The position numbers were made by a program, and so were the translations under genes. A stretch of 64,000 nucleotides of DNA from a virus. Positions 1,823 through 58,417 of this stretch are shown one piece after another. Position 1 is the first letter of the stretch. Each line of letters begins with the position of its first letter. The notes beneath the pieces are model-generated. The model did no database searches, had not been told where the DNA came from, and was given only the letters and a program-made list of their open reading frames with translations. The stretch is from the IMG/VR virus record IMGVR_UViG_3300031951_000015, positions 1 through 64,000 of that record. The stretch is one strand, 5' to 3'.

Positions 1823-3244
1823 TCACATAAGATTTGAAACCTTAACTCTTCTGTAGTATACGTTAGAGTTGGTAGCAATGTTACCACTTGTTGCATCTGG
1901 AGCAGTAGCTCCCTTAGCAAATGGATTGTTAACGACTCCATAACGAGTCTTAAATCCGATTTTTGGTTGGAAGGTTTGCTCACCAACAGCACGTACCATC
2001 TGGAGAGGTACGTATGGGCAGTAGAAGAGACCTGCATCGTAAGGCGAGGTGCCCTTATAACCGACAACGTAGAACTGGTTAGCAGCAACGTTTGCCGAAT
2101 ATGGGTCAATATAGACTCTGTACTTACCTTGAAGGACACCAGCAAAGGTGTTGCCAGTATCATCAACGTTCAGATTAGCGTTAAGTGCAGGGGTGTAATC
2201 GAGAACACCAGCCATGGTTAGTGCTGAAGCAACGTCTGCCGAGCACAGGATAGTGTTACCCTTTCCTCTACGAGTTTGCTGTGCAATTGCGTTTGCATCG
2301 CGCTCGATTTGGAAGATGAGACCCTTGAACTTCTCAACCGACCAACGACCGTTAGAGTCAACATCAAGGTCAAAAGTACCTTGGGTTGCAGTGTTAACCT
2401 GAGCACCAGGAACAGCAATCTTATAGATGGTACGGATGATTTCTCTGTTGATTTCAGCGAGGATCTCAGTGCTGAGGATGTTTGCAAGCTCAGCTTCTGC
2501 ATTCAGACCGTGAATTGCCTTCAGGTCTTGTGCAAGTTCGAGTGAGTACTCAGCTTTCAGAGCACGTGACTTAGCAGTAACGGTGAGCTTCTCGATTGAG
2601 AAAGCCATCTCGTTAAAGTAGTTGGTATTGCCGTCGCCAAGTGCTTCAGCATTACCAGTGGTCATTGCTTCACCAACGTTATACTGGTTAGCACCAGCAG
2701 CAGCGTTAGTTGATTGATCAGTTGGGCTGAGAAGTGCTGGGTTGCGGTTGCTATCTTGAGTTGTAGTACCTAAACCAACAGCTCCATCGATGAATCCTGC
2801 ATTGAGGTTACGGGAGTTATTCTGACCAGAGAATGCAGAATCAGCTTCGTTGTAGAATGCTTCAGTTCCAGATTGATTCTGATAACGTGAACGCATTGCG
2901 AAGATGAGTCCAGTAGGACCATTCATTGGTTGAACACCGCACAGATCATAAGCGATCAGGTTGGGCATTGAACGTCTGATCAGTGAGATCAGAACTGGAT
3001 CGAAACCAGCAACAGGTGAACCTGTAGTATTTGATGCGCTACCACCAAAACCGCCGGTACCGGCAGAGTTGGTTGGGGATGCTTCGTAAAGGAATGAACG
3101 CTCTTCACGAAGTTCTCTTTCTTGGTTTTCGAGCAGGATAGCGGTTACCGATCTACGATGTGAATCTTTGATTGGATCCATTCCTTGATAATCAAGGATT
3201 GGTGCCCACTTCTCCTGCAGATATTCGGAGTTGTACATCTGCAT
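1823..3244 (-). CDS. gp23: Major capsid protein gp23
   Basis: 473 residues, within the cyanophage gp23 range. N-terminal sequence YLQEKWAPILDYQGMDPIKD and the acidic region up to residue 54 are typical of gp23. Residues 52-55 (LYE followed by A) fit the gp21 protease rule (hydrophobic-X-Glu, cut after Glu), so the mature protein likely starts at A55. It forms the hexamers of the capsid shell. The Shine-Dalgarno AGAGG lies upstream in an AT-rich leader with a host-like TATAATATA box. It is followed by a strong terminator, as expected for a very highly expressed gene. Confidence 0.97.
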   Translation of the reverse strand: MQMYNSEYLQEKWAPILDYQGMDPIKDSHRRSVTAILLENQERELREERSFLYEASPTNSAGTGGFGGSASNTTGSPVAGFDPVLISLIRRSMPNLIAYDLCGVQPMNGPTGLIFAMRSRYQNQSGTEAFYNEADSAFSGQNNSRNLNAGFIDGAVGLGTTTQDSNRNPALLSPTDQSTNAAAGANQYNVGEAMTTGNAEALGDGNTNYFNEMAFSIEKLTVTAKSRALKAEYSLELAQDLKAIHGLNAEAELANILSTEILAEINREIIRTIYKIAVPGAQVNTATQGTFDLDVDSNGRWSVEKFKGLIFQIERDANAIAQQTRRGKGNTILCSADVASALTMAGVLDYTPALNANLNVDDTGNTFAGVLQGKYRVYIDPYSANVAANQFYVVGYKGTSPYDAGLFYCPYVPLQMVRAVGEQTFQPKIGFKTRYGVVNNPFAKGATAPDATSGNIATNSNVYYRRVKVSNLM

Positions 3245-4511: not shown

Positions 4512-5162
4512 TTATAGATTTGAAAGAAAATCGTTGAAAAGATTGAGTTTATGCTCTTCAAGTTTTCTTTGATCAACGAGAGTATTAATTCTTCTTTGAG
4601 TCTGTTCGGCAAGTTTTTCACGAAGAATTCCACCTTCCCAAACCCACTCTTTTCCTTCCATAATTCCTTGCACAAAAGCATCAGGTGCAGAAGGATCGGC
4701 AACAATGTCAGCAGCAGTCGCAAGCATGAAATCTTCACCAACAATTTTATGACCTTCATTGGTCATCTTTAGTGAACCAACACCACGAGAAGAAACACCA
4801 AGACAAACTCCCTCACCAATAAGAGATTTTGCAATCTTACCCATTGGCGTTTCAAGAAGTTGTGCCTTACCTCTAAAATTTGATCCTTCACAAGTAAGAG
4901 AAACAATCTTGTGAGAAACACGATCAAGATTTACAGTTGGACCATCAGGATGTCCAAGTTCTCCAAGAGCACGACCTTTATTGACAAATGCTTCCGTGTA
5001 TCTTTTCACCTCTCTGGAAAGAGTTTCCATAGGATACATTCTTCCGTTACGGTTACAAATGTCACCCTGAAGGAAAATACCTTCAATAAACATTTTTTTA
5101 TCAGCACCTTTTCCTTCGGTGATGAATTTTACTTGTGATACTTCTTCTGTGATGAGTTTCAT
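4512..5162 (-). CDS. gp21: Prohead core protease gp21
   Basis: 216 residues, matching T4 gp21 (212). H71 in ELGHPDG and S124/S125 in GVSSRG are the expected catalytic His and Ser of the phage-T4-type serine protease (herpes assemblin-like fold). It matures the prohead by cutting after Glu in scaffold, capsid and internal proteins. Candidate substrates in this window are gp23 (after E54), gp22 and the MKTF-leader proteins at 56.3-57.5 kb and 13.9 kb. The ATG lies two bases after the upstream stop. Confidence 0.95.
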   Translation of the reverse strand: MKLITEEVSQVKFITEGKGADKKMFIEGIFLQGDICNRNGRMYPMETLSREVKRYTEAFVNKGRALGELGHPDGPTVNLDRVSHKIVSLTCEGSNFRGKAQLLETPMGKIAKSLIGEGVCLGVSSRGVGSLKMTNEGHKIVGEDFMLATAADIVADPSAPDAFVQGIMEGKEWVWEGGILREKLAEQTQRRINTLVDQRKLEEHKLNLFNDFLSNL

Positions 5163-13930: not shown

Positions 13931-14245
13931 TCAATCACTCCAGGTTAAACTTTCTGGTCTATATCTTTGTGCATTTTTAATCTTTAAGGAATTGTTTGTT
14001 GATGGATAAATGTTGTGAACAATTGCTCCAGGATATTCACCCTGCAATTGTTCAGCAAGTGCATTTTTATCCATCATCTTACCTTCAACTTCCATACGAT
14101 ATAATTTTCCTTGCCAAACAACATCGGCAAGAAAAGATTCACCAACTGGTTCTGACTGTGATTCAGAACTATTTACATAGAGATTTCCATTGAAGTCTCC
14201 TGCAATATTTACGCTTTCTGAAAGAAACTCTTTGAATGATTTCAT
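13931..14245 (-). CDS. Putative capsid-targeted small protein (MKSFKEFLSES leader)
   Basis: 104 residues. Starts MKSFKEFLSES, which matches the T4 capsid-targeting sequence pattern MKTYQEFIAEA found on internal proteins and Alt; LSE followed by S fits the gp21 cleavage rule. The rest is a compact alpha/beta domain ending RYRPESLTWSD. The gene sits within the packaging operon, four bases from its neighbours. I infer it is packaged in the head and trimmed by gp21; the remaining domain is unknown. Confidence 0.7.
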   Translation of the reverse strand: MKSFKEFLSESVNIAGDFNGNLYVNSSESQSEPVGESFLADVVWQGKLYRMEVEGKMMDKNALAEQLQGEYPGAIVHNIYPSTNNSLKIKNAQRYRPESLTWSD

Positions 14246-56286: not shown

Positions 56287-56345
56287 ATTATAAGGGTGCT
56301 ACAGGCGATTCTGATGGGGCGTGTGACAGTTCTTCAAGTGTCAGT
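56287..56345 (-). promoter_or_regulatory. Dyad-type promoter 11
   Basis: Dyad 56322-56345 overlaps the stop of the ART-like gene; TATAAT at 56287-56292, gap 29. Confidence 0.7.
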
Positions 56346-56991
56346 CTGCCAGTCCAACTCCTGCAATTCCAAATCTTCCACCTGCTCCAGGAGTGTATGA
56401 TGTTGAGTTGGTTCTAGAGTTTGTATTTGAAAGAGATCCTGACATGCGAGTTTGTGTTCTTCTTTCTTTACCTTTTGCTCGAATTGTTGGTTGAGGATTG
56501 GTTACAATAGACTTATTTGCAACATCCTTATCCATCATCACATAAGATCCTTGTGCCTGTCCTGGTCTTGGAGTAAATCCTCCATGTGCATTTGGAACTC
56601 TAACTACTTTAGCACCTTGTTTGAATGCTGCTTTTGCCTGATCAACAGAACTGGTTGGTTTACCTTTCTTATCAGCAATATCTTCATCAGATGCTGATGC
56701 CATCCAACGTTTGATGTTTTTACCAAAATCTCTTGGTGAATCTGTGTTTGTCATTCTTGGATTGACAACTCTTAGATTCACTCTTGATCCACCATAATCA
56801 GAACCAACTCTGGATGATGGAGTAGTATAAACAACTCCTTTTCGTTCATCAGGATGATAGGTTCCAGTGGATGGTGAGTCCTGGAATCCAGTTTTGAGGA
56901 TATTTTCCTTATTTGAAGCAGAAGTATAATGTGCTGTGCGAAGAACTCTCATTCTTCTTGCTTCTGCAATAAATTCAGAAAATGTCTTCAT
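56341..56991 (-). CDS. Capsid-targeted putative ADP-ribosyltransferase-like protein
   Basis: 216 residues. MKTFSEFIAEA is almost the T4 capsid-targeting leader (MKTYQEFIAEA on IPI-III and Alt); gp21 would cut after E10. Residues 20-60 (AHYTSASNKENILKTGF, then GVVYTTPSS) resemble the first two strands of the ADP-ribosyltransferase fold: H-Y-[T/S]-S with a following helix, and a V-x-Y-x-T-P strand. A third catalytic Glu/Gln is not clear. The C-terminal third is basic and disordered. T4 Alt is an internal ADP-ribosyltransferase injected with the DNA, so this could be an analogue. A GATAAATA late element lies upstream, as expected for a virion protein. Confidence 0.7.
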   Translation of the reverse strand: MKTFSEFIAEARRMRVLRTAHYTSASNKENILKTGFQDSPSTGTYHPDERKGVVYTTPSSRVGSDYGGSRVNLRVVNPRMTNTDSPRDFGKNIKRWMASASDEDIADKKGKPTSSVDQAKAAFKQGAKVVRVPNAHGGFTPRPGQAQGSYVMMDKDVANKSIVTNPQPTIRAKGKERRTQTRMSGSLSNTNSRTNSTSYTPGAGGRFGIAGVGLAD

Positions 56992-57006
56992 GACTCTTTT
57001 AAAAAT

Positions 57007-57014
57007 TATTTATC
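57007..57014 (-). promoter_or_regulatory. Late promoter GATAAATA for the ART-like gene
   Basis: One mismatch to the late consensus, 16 bp before the ATG. Confidence 0.5.
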
Positions 57015-57303
57015 TTCCAGGACGATCTTGATTCAGCATATAAGTCAGTTTTGCTAGATCTGGATCTGCTCTCTTTTCTGCTGGTGTTCTGCGTCGTTGT
57101 TGACGTTCAGTTTGATACTGTTTTAGTTTGTTAATATCTTCCTTAACTGCTTTTGCTAACTTAACTGGTGGTTTCTTTAATGGTTCCAGATACCTTTCCT
57201 TCCAACCTGGTGGTGGTGTTGATGGTTCAGGTTGTGGTGCTGGTTTATAAGGTTGATACGGAGATCCACCGCTTTCGGACATGAACTGTGAAAATGTCTT
57301 CAT
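57010..57303 (-). CDS. Capsid-targeted basic protein, 97 aa
   Basis: 97 residues. Leader MKTFSQFMSES, then a Pro-rich stretch (PYQPYKPAPQPEPSTPPPGW) and a basic helix (KLAKAVKEDINKLKQYQTER). gp21 could cut after E10. Resembles T4 internal proteins in leader, size and charge. No enzyme domain. Confidence 0.75.
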   Translation of the reverse strand: MKTFSQFMSESGGSPYQPYKPAPQPEPSTPPPGWKERYLEPLKKPPVKLAKAVKEDINKLKQYQTERQQRRRTPAEKRADPDLAKLTYMLNQDRPGR

Positions 57304-57307
57304 GATT

Positions 57308-57514
57308 CTACAGTGGTGAGAGCATCGTGTTGATTCTCATTCTTTGAATGAATTGTCTCACACGATCTGGATCTTTTGTTGGTTTTGGTGCTTGAGTTGG
57401 TTGTCTCATGGCACTTCTGAGATTTCTTTGAACTTCTGGATCTTTGAGTGAGATCACCTGTGCTGGTTTAATTGGATCACCCACTGCTTCCAGAAATTGT
57501 GCAAAGGTTTTCAT
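57308..57514 (-). CDS. Capsid-targeted small basic protein, 68 aa
   Basis: 68 residues. Leader MKTFAQFLEAVGD; cut possible after E9. The mature part (DPEVQRNLRSAMRQPTQAPK onward) is basic. Preceded by CTAAATA (57525-57531). First gene of the internal-protein cluster. Confidence 0.75.
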   Translation of the reverse strand: MKTFAQFLEAVGDPIKPAQVISLKDPEVQRNLRSAMRQPTQAPKPTKDPDRVRQFIQRMRINTMLSPL

Positions 57515-57523
57515 GTTTTATTT

Positions 57524-58417
57524 TTATTTAGACCATGCCTTTTGCATCGTGAAGTTCGCATGACTGAAGAACTCTCTGTTGACCAGTTTATAAGTGCCAT
57601 ACTCATTGGACATTACATAACCTTCGGCATCAATCCGATCATATCCAATATAAGCAGCAGGGCCATCATTGCGACACAGGAACAGACAATCTTCCTTGAT
57701 GGATTTGACCAACTTCCACAGGCGAATCAGATTGGCATCACAATCAAATGCATCATCCTCAATCTTACGCTGTTCCCGAATACACGCATTGATCGCTTTC
57801 TTCAATTCAGTCAGTTGTTTACCAGACACAAAGGTGCAAGTAGTAGACATTTGACGGGCAAAGTCACAGATTTCTTCCACATCAGCAAAAGAGATCTGAT
57901 TGTGTTGAATATATGCTTTGGGTTTCACAAACAACACTTCATCAGTGCTGTTCAGATTAACTGTAAGTGGAATTGCCCAACTGTCACGCAGATCATCATT
58001 TGCCTCATAACGAGTATGAGGAGCAAGAATCACCTTGTGTGTGATGACATCAGGAAACTGATAAGTGATGGTATTAGGAGTGTATTCAGTGTCTCCACCA
58101 AAACCAATGAAATCACCTTGAATAATATCTTCGGTACGTGGCAGAACATCAAAACACTCATGCAAAATGTTTGCCACATTGCCTTCATAGAATTGATCAA
58201 TCTCTTCATGAGAATGTGCAATGCGAATCTTTACCTTGTTGAAAACCGCTTTGGTGCCAACAAAGAATTGACCATTAGCAGGATTGGTTCCCCATACAAT
58301 CGCAGGAGCACCATCAATCTTCAGAGACAATGTGCCTGCAGCAGTGAACCAATCCAGCACATTCAGATCACCATTCAGAATGGTGTCTTCAGGATGCTCA
58401 ATGTGAAGGTTTTGCAT
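57524..58417 (-). CDS. Nucleotidyltransferase/ligase-like protein with KxDG motif
   Basis: 297 residues. K33-I-D-G in LSLKIDGAPAIVWG is motif I of the covalent nucleotidyltransferase superfamily (ATP-dependent DNA/RNA ligases). GDFIGFGG near residue 103 could be motif III, EGYVMSNEYGTYKLVN near the C-terminus motifs IV and V. It lacks an obvious C-terminal OB domain of DNA ligase, so an RNA-ligase-like or nick-sealing role is possible. It is a known-looking cyanophage family, which I believe is often labelled DUF6267. It is expressed from a dyad promoter and its last codons hold the late promoter of the next gene. Confidence 0.75.
   Translation of the reverse strand: MQNLHIEHPEDTILNGDLNVLDWFTAAGTLSLKIDGAPAIVWGTNPANGQFFVGTKAVFNKVKIRIAHSHEEIDQFYEGNVANILHECFDVLPRTEDIIQGDFIGFGGDTEYTPNTITYQFPDVITHKVILAPHTRYEANDDLRDSWAIPLTVNLNSTDEVLFVKPKAYIQHNQISFADVEEICDFARQMSTTCTFVSGKQLTELKKAINACIREQRKIEDDAFDCDANLIRLWKLVKSIKEDCLFLCRNDGPAAYIGYDRIDAEGYVMSNEYGTYKLVNREFFSHANFTMQKAWSK
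57525..57531 (-). promoter_or_regulatory. Late promoter motif CTAAATA for the capsid-targeted cluster
   Basis: CTAAATA overlaps the stop of the ligase-like gene, 11 bp upstream of the 68-aa ATG. Confidence 0.5.

What the first reader, a model, noticed from the sequence alone, without database searches (positions are those of the whole stretch)
56341..57514. Cluster of three T4-type capsid-targeted proteins, one with an ADP-ribosyltransferase-like start
Three adjacent genes begin MKTFSEFIAEA, MKTFSQFMSES and MKTFAQFLEA, nearly the T4 leader MKTYQEFIAEA of Alt and the internal proteins. All have a Glu where gp21 would cut, as does gp23 (LYE-A). Late-type motifs (CTAAATA, GATAAATA) precede two of them, although they lie among genes with dyad promoters. 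The 216-aa member carries HYTS and VVYTTP strands resembling the ART fold. These may be proteins injected with the DNA to modify host proteins, little described in cyanophages.
Basis: partly seen in the sequence, partly recalled or inferred. Interest (0 to 1): 0.78.

Follow-up and report, generated by a model that had tools for sequence, protein, structure and literature searches.

The report
Cyanophage capsid-loaded enzyme gene array
In a virus of cyanobacteria, three neighbouring genes carry the same short tag that makes phage T4 pack proteins inside its head, and one of them has the fold of an ADP-ribosylating enzyme; in related viruses the same spot holds other tagged enzymes, so these viruses probably deliver a changeable set of enzymes into the host together with their DNA.

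Summary
Confirmed. Three tandem minus-strand genes (57514 to 56341) begin MKTF..F..E. The same leader pattern, searched blind in T4, returns ipI, ipII and ipIII. G000 (174,667 bp; gp21-22-23, portal, psbA/psbD) has five leader ORFs where shuffling expects 0.02. The only two late-type motifs on the coding strand between 46 and 64 kb lie 10 and 15 bp before leader ATGs; across relatives 32 of 94 leader genes have the motif against about 2.6 expected. The 216-aa protein is ART-like: AlphaFold/Foldseek puts ART-superfamily members in the first 49 PDB places, and named viral hits are PARP-like or ART-PolyVal. Its class is H-Y-x (H21, Y55 invariant in 27 relatives), not the R-S-E class of T4 Alt/ModA; Ser149 appears to sit where the catalytic Glu would be, so activity is uncertain. 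At least 42 IMG/VR contigs carry relatives; none was found in cultured phages or 84,980 prokaryote genomes. The locus is a swappable late array in freshwater-type Kyanoviridae (ART-A, a second ART, GNAT, zincin-like protease, Pro-rich proteins), sometimes fused with an internal leader/cleavage site. Best reading: head-packaged, injected host-modifying enzymes. Packaging, cleavage and catalysis are inferred.

The parts
56341..56991 (-). 216-aa leader-tagged ART-like protein (here called ART-A); residues 12-165 folded, 179-216 disordered tail ending GGRFGIAGVGLAD
   Evidence: ORF; 42+ related contigs; AF2 model; Foldseek; invariant H21, Y55
56959..56991 (-). leader MKTFSEFIAE|A of the ART-like protein (predicted gp21 cut after E10)
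   Evidence: T4 IPII/IPIII leader MKTYQEFIAE|A; residues 4, 7, 8, 10 conserved
57007..57013 (-). late-promoter-like ATAAATA, 15 bp before the ART-A ATG
57010..57303 (-). 97-aa Pro-rich leader-tagged protein; its C-terminus (..YMLNQDRPGR) resembles S-SRM01 gp165 (..YMLNLDRPGR); family recurs in relatives
   Evidence: no cultured-phage tblastn hit
57271..57303 (-). leader MKTFSQFMSE|S
   Evidence: pattern search
57308..57514 (-). 68-aa leader-tagged protein; family recurs as first gene of the array in L008 and L012
57485..57514 (-). leader MKTFAQFLE|A (Glu at position 9)
   Evidence: pattern search
57525..57531 (-). late-promoter-like CTAAATA, 10 bp before the 68-aa ATG; conserved at the same place in relatives
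57524..58417 (-). 297-aa DUF6267/phrog_455 protein, the syntenic gene immediately upstream of the array
   Evidence: synteny
4512..5162 (-). gp21 prohead maturation protease, predicted to cut the leaders
   Evidence: phrog_207 E 7.5e-81
1823..3244 (-). gp23 major capsid protein with putative gp21 site LYE|A at residue 54
   Evidence: 91% identical to S-SRM01 MCP
13931..14245 (-). 104-aa leader-bearing protein (MKSFKEFLSES, phrog_1742) in the virion gene cluster

Best explanation
The three genes are cargo genes of a T4-style capsid-targeting system in a cyanophage. Shown by sequence: T4-like leaders, late-type promoter motifs, a gp21 protease gene, an ART-like core in the 216-aa protein, and a swappable array of leader-tagged enzyme genes at the same locus in relatives. 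Inferred: late in infection the leaders carry the proteins into the prohead core; gp21 cuts after Glu9/10; the mature proteins stay in the head with the DNA and enter the next host at injection. There the ART-like protein, a PARP/ART-PolyVal-type H-Y enzyme rather than an Alt-type one, modifies (or, if inactive, binds) a host component to disarm defence or redirect the host before phage transcription begins.
For: Leader: the pattern finds ipI, ipII, ipIII (plus 61.1) in T4; G000 enrichment 5 versus 0.02; F7 and E10 invariant, F/Y4 and I/L8 in all 27 ART-A members, matching T4 mutagenesis (PMC9026906); PHROG 'internal head protein' (phrog_2667) is matched by 8 of 27 members. Late expression. 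Protease. Fold: with L018 linking ART-A to a second ART family whose best solved-structure sequence hits are KptA/Tpt1 RNA 2'-phosphotransferases and which has a sub-threshold Pfam ART-PolyVal hit. Array context. Fusions keep an internal F..F[I].E[AS] leader without its Met.
Against: No virion proteomics for this phage or its relatives was found. Foldseek PDB E-values are marginal (best 3.7e-3, TM about 0.3) and no Pfam ART family matches ART-A itself. The canonical catalytic Glu position appears to be an invariant Ser149, so catalysis may be lost or differ. The leaders of the 97- and 68-aa proteins deviate from T4 at position 8 or in the spacing to Glu.
Confidence: 0.72

Rival explanations
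1. The 216-aa protein is packaged, but is a catalytically dead ART-fold protein: it acts by binding (NAD, DNA, an RM or other defence enzyme, or scaffold) rather than by ADP-ribosylation, as T4 IPI acts by inhibiting a restriction enzyme.
For: Ser149 is invariant at the position aligned by eye with the ART catalytic Glu; the second ART family has Tyr/His there; relatives end in basic tails (KRRTKTQPKKK) suited to DNA or scaffold binding.
Against: H21 and Y55, the NAD-binding residues of H-Y ARTs, are invariant in 27 of 27; D154 is kept in 25 of 27 and position 156 is acidic in 26 of 27; polyvalent ARTs use Asp in strand 5 (PMC5512222); some mono-ARTs lack the Glu (own knowledge).
Confidence: 0.25
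2. The leader is not a capsid-targeting sequence but a conserved translation-initiation or interaction motif shared by host-takeover genes made after infection.
For: The genes lie in an early-type region next to a non-virion gene (DUF6267); the leader is absent or rare in several marine cyanophages (S-PM2, syn9, S-T4).
Against: The same pattern in T4 picks ipI, ipII, ipIII; the motif is conserved at protein level (F4, F7, I8, E10) and survives at internal junctions without its start codon in four fusion ORFs; late-type promoter motifs precede the arrays.
Confidence: 0.08
3. The ART-like protein works as an NAD-consuming or nucleic-acid-modifying enzyme (NatT/RES-like or KptA/DarT-like) rather than as a protein modifier.
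For: NatT ranks 9-10 in Foldseek with the highest TM of the top ten (0.37); KptA/Tpt1 are the top PDB hits of the second family.
Against: Most structural neighbours are protein-modifying PARP/diphtheria-type ARTs, and gene neighbours are GNAT-type acetyltransferases.
Confidence: 0.15

Closest known systems
T4 internal proteins IPI, IPII, IPIII (capsid targeting sequence, gp21 processing)
   Same: Leader residues F/Y4, F7, I/L8, E10; gp21 gene; late-type promoter motif; small basic cargo; adjacent tagged genes
   Different: Cargo includes recognisable enzymes (two ART families, GNAT, zincin-like) and fusions with an internal leader; host is a cyanobacterium; packaging not shown
T4 Alt (packaged ADP-ribosyltransferase)
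   Same: Predicted function: ART carried in the head and injected
   Different: Alt is R-S-E clade with a 7-residue propeptide; this is H-Y type with the IPII/IPIII-type leader and no detected sequence relation
ART-PolyVal / Tox-ART-HYD2 domains of polyvalent proteins (P1 DarB-like, PLxRFG)
   Same: H in strand 1, Y in strand 2; the GNAT domains of the same array are related to domains inside DarB-like/PLxRFG proteins; likely co-injected
   Different: Here each domain is a separate small gene with its own head-targeting leader instead of one giant polypeptide; third catalytic residue uncertain; Pfam ART-PolyVal matches only the sister family, sub-threshold (0.023)
S-SRM01 gp165/gp167/gp168, S-CRM01 'acetyltransferase' g185, Synechococcus phage B23 gp252/gp253
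   Same: Same leader; S-SRM01 has the same locus behind DUF6267; late-type motif before S-CRM01 g185
   Different: No ART-A in these genomes; annotated hypothetical or acetyltransferase without mention of capsid targeting

Membership tests
T4-type capsid-targeted internal head protein | Leader M-K-[TS]-[FY]-x-x-[FY]-[IL]-x-E with residues 4/7 (targeting) and 8/10 (processing) | tested here: met
   27/27 ART-A members F/Y4, F7, I/L8, E10; T4 control. The 97-aa (M at 8) and 68-aa (E at 9) proteins fit less exactly
T4-type capsid-targeted internal head protein | gp21-type prohead protease in the same genome | tested here: met
   4512-5162, phrog_207 E 7.5e-81
T4-type capsid-targeted internal head protein | Late expression | tested here: met
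   Motif level only: late-type motifs 10 and 15 bp before ATGs; 32 of 94 leader genes versus 2.6 expected
T4-type capsid-targeted internal head protein | Present in virions, leader removed, ejected into host | not testable with these tools
   Needs virion proteomics; none found in papers searched
ADP-ribosyltransferase superfamily | ART fold | tested here: met
   AF2 core pLDDT mostly 75-93; top 49 PDB neighbours all ART superfamily, best E 3.7e-3; BFVD E 9e-6 to 7e-4, named hits include PARP/ART. Prediction, not experiment
ADP-ribosyltransferase superfamily (H-Y-E/D class) | His in strand 1 and Tyr in strand 2 | tested here: met
   H21 in strand 16-23, Y55 in strand 53-57, both 27/27
ADP-ribosyltransferase superfamily (H-Y-E/D class) | Acidic third catalytic residue in strand 5 | tested here: inconclusive
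   Glu position appears to be Ser149 (27/27); D154 at the end of that strand 25/27; position 156 acidic 26/27
Alt/ModA/ModB (R-S-E) family | R-S-E active site and sequence or fold similarity to Alt | tested here: not met
   H-Y site instead; no Alt family hit; structural neighbours are PARP/diphtheria/KptA types
Polyvalent proteins (ART-PolyVal) | ART domain inside a large multidomain polypeptide; match to PF18760 | tested here: not met
   Window protein is a single 216-aa domain with no Pfam hit; sister family 0.023, sub-threshold

The most novel reading that the evidence does not exclude
Freshwater-type Kyanoviridae carry, behind the DUF6267 gene, a swappable late operon that loads the capsid with several separate single-domain protein-modifying enzymes (two H-Y-type ART families, GNAT acetyltransferases, zincin-like proteases), each with its own T4-type leader and sometimes made as a gp21-cleavable two-domain precursor: a disassembled polyvalent protein delivered the way T4 delivers its internal proteins.
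Probability: 0.6. Interest if true: 0.75.

Novelty: new variant of a known kind. Interest (0 to 1): 0.64.

Why it matters
Whether cyanophages inject host-modifying proteins at time zero, as T4 does with Alt and the IPs, is little studied. This gives a sequence rule (leader plus late motif) that predicts which hypothetical genes are head cargo, a cultured phage with the same locus (S-SRM01 on Synechococcus KCZYC6) to test it on, and a new H-Y-type ART-like family found so far only in uncultured phage contigs. It also links two delivery themes known separately: T4 leader-tagged internal proteins and polyvalent-protein enzyme domains.

Tried and rejected
Pfam and PHROG scans of the three proteins gave no assignable family. 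tblastn of ART-A against cultured phages gave only chance-level Vibrio capsid matches at E 0.1 or worse; the other two proteins gave nothing useful. No relative in prokaryote genomes. Profile search of ART-A against PDB sequences gave only chance ribosomal hits. The first profile comparison of the two ART families shared one member and the leader, so it was redone without both: direct ART-A to ART-B support is then weak (probability 49%) and the link runs through L018. Rejected: membership of the Alt/ModA family; that Alt carries MKTYQEFIAEA. The family around L015:4600 gave only a weak GNAT-like structural signal and is reported as suggestive. Sigma-70 scans of the region were at chance level.

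Full report
Observation. The three ORFs exist as described on the minus strand: in order of transcription 57514-57308 (68 aa, MKTFAQFLEA), 57303-57010 (97 aa, MKTFSQFMSES) and 56991-56341 (216 aa, MKTFSEFIAEA). G000 is a 174,667-base virus record with two photosystem II reaction-centre genes (psbA/psbD type), a capsid protein 91% identical to that of the freshwater cyanomyovirus S-SRM01, and T4-type gp23, gp22, gp21, portal, tail tube, sheath and terminase. It is a freshwater-type cyanophage of the Kyanoviridae; the exact host is not known.

The leader is real and specific. In G000, 5 of 315 minus-strand ATG ORFs of at least 50 aa start with M[KR][TS][FY]xx[FYLM]x(1-3)E; shuffling the N-termini gives 0.02 on average and at most 1 in 2000 trials. 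The other two are a conserved 104-aa protein in the virion cluster (13931-14245, phrog_1742) and a Cys-rich 67-aa protein outside the window. As a positive control the DNA form of the leader was searched in T4: apart from a few hits that lack the downstream Glu, it returns ipI, ipII and ipIII, the three experimentally known internal proteins, plus 61.1. Reversed-pattern controls give none for the strict form. In T4 the first ten residues of IPIII suffice for head targeting; residues 4 and 7 matter for targeting, 8 and 10 for processing by gp21 (PMC9026906). In 27 ART-A members these are F/Y4, F7, I/L8 and E10 without exception. phrog_2667, 'internal head protein', is matched by 8 of the 27 (E down to 0.0075).

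Late expression. In G000 the motif NTAAATA lies 12-36 bp before the ATG of gp20, gp18, gp22 and many virion genes. Between 46 and 64 kb, a stretch of small early-type genes, the only two minus-strand copies lie 10 bp before the 68-aa gene and 15 bp before the 216-aa gene. Across related loci 32 of 94 leader genes have TAAATA within 60 bp upstream, against about 2.6 expected from background; those without are mostly downstream, overlapping genes of the same array.

The 216-aa protein. The AlphaFold2 model made with 27 sequences has mean pLDDT 75, mostly 75-93 over residues 1-165, and a disordered tail. The first 49 Foldseek PDB hits are all ART superfamily (diphtheria toxin, exotoxin A, NatT, PARPs, KptA/Tpt1), although none passes 1e-3 and TM-scores are about 0.3. 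Among viral models seven pass 1e-3, and the named ones include PARP-like proteins; an NAD(+) ADP-ribosyltransferase and ART-PolyVal follow at 2e-3 and 7.6e-3. H21 (strand 1) and Y55 (strand 2) are invariant, as in the H-Y classes; ARTs of polyvalent proteins have H, Y and D in strands 1, 2 and 5 (PMC5512222). By eye, Ser149 takes the position of the usual Glu; D154 (25/27) ends that strand and position 156 is acidic in 26/27. Activity therefore cannot be called. T4 Alt/ModA are R-S-E enzymes, so the shared theme is delivery, not descent.

The locus is a swappable array. DUF6267/phrog_455 lies immediately upstream in the window, in S-SRM01 and in many ART-A contigs, usually 13-28 bp before the first leader ATG. 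Behind it relatives carry one to four leader genes, often overlapping by ATGA, drawn from: ART-A; a second family, ART-B (HGT...I...G; best solved-structure sequence hits are KptA/Tpt1 at 0.016-0.37; sub-threshold Pfam ART-PolyVal at 0.023); GNAT acetyltransferases (Acetyltransf_7 9.6e-7); a zincin-like protease (phrog_87 metallo-protease 4.6e-5); a 228-250-aa family with a weak GNAT-like structural signal; and Pro-rich proteins like the 97-aa one. L018 carries the same leader on a divergent core and links ART-A (7.6e-11) to ART-B (4.8e-8) with leaders removed. The GNAT domains are related to domains inside DarB-like and PLxRFG polyvalent proteins. Cultured phages with leader genes include S-CRM01 ('acetyltransferase' MKTFDEFLTEG), B23 and S-SRM01.

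Fusions. In four loci the ART domain is the C-terminal half of a 420-460-aa ORF. At the junction the leader survives without its Met (RSFLLFITEA, RSFLMFITEA, TFQEFIEES, KTFEEFINEA); in three of them the only two [LIVMF]xE[AGS] sites are at residue 10 and at the junction. This argues that the motif is kept as protein sequence, as expected for a gp21 site separating two cargo proteins, and not as a translation signal.

Mechanism and limits. The best explanation is packaging through the leader, gp21 cleavage, and injection, followed by modification of host targets by the ART-like protein. The leader, promoter motif, protease, fold and array are sequence or prediction results; packaging, cleavage, injection, catalysis and target are inference. 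The 97- and 68-aa proteins may be structural or inhibitory cargo like T4 IPs; nothing here shows their function. In the papers searched no description of such arrays in cyanophages was found, but most subscription literature is not held.

Noticed in passing
57524-58417: DUF6267/phrog_455 protein contains LSLKIDGAPAIVWG ... IIQGDFIGFGGD, a KxDG-type motif reminiscent of nucleotidyltransferases/ligases; relatives in 461 phage records, mostly cyanophages, and it marks the insertion site of the leader arrays.
   Followed up: partly
G000 75408-75611 (outside window; L020 12408-12611): 67-aa protein MKSYQEFIAEEEKSSKETAKYQNHPKGNEKCSNCNMWRPPNACTAVKGKIAADGWCKWHQYDRKNKD: T4-type leader followed by a Cys pattern resembling high-potential iron-sulfur proteins; family not tested.
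   Followed up: no
13931-14245: Leader-bearing 104-aa protein (phrog_1742) in the virion cluster beside a virion structural protein; S-SRM01 gp208 starts with the same leader at the same place.
   Followed up: partly
L089 462 onward (S-SM2 SSM2_161): Annotated 'cytidyltransferase' of a marine cyanophage begins MKSFFQFLSEA, so it may also be head cargo.
   Followed up: no
L085 367-531 (T4 gene 61.1): T4 61.1, a 54-aa hypothetical protein, begins MKTFKEFIKED, like a capsid-targeting leader.
   Followed up: no
L054 2752-3126, L055 5215-5589: Leader-tagged zincin/SprT-like small protein at the head of the array in two relatives.
   Followed up: partly
56341-56991, C-terminus: The C-terminal peptide [YF]TPGxGGR[FY]GI[AG]GVGLAD is kept in ART-A proteins with different cores (L004, L007, L012, L037) but replaced by a basic tail in others, as if the tail were exchanged as a module.
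   Followed up: no
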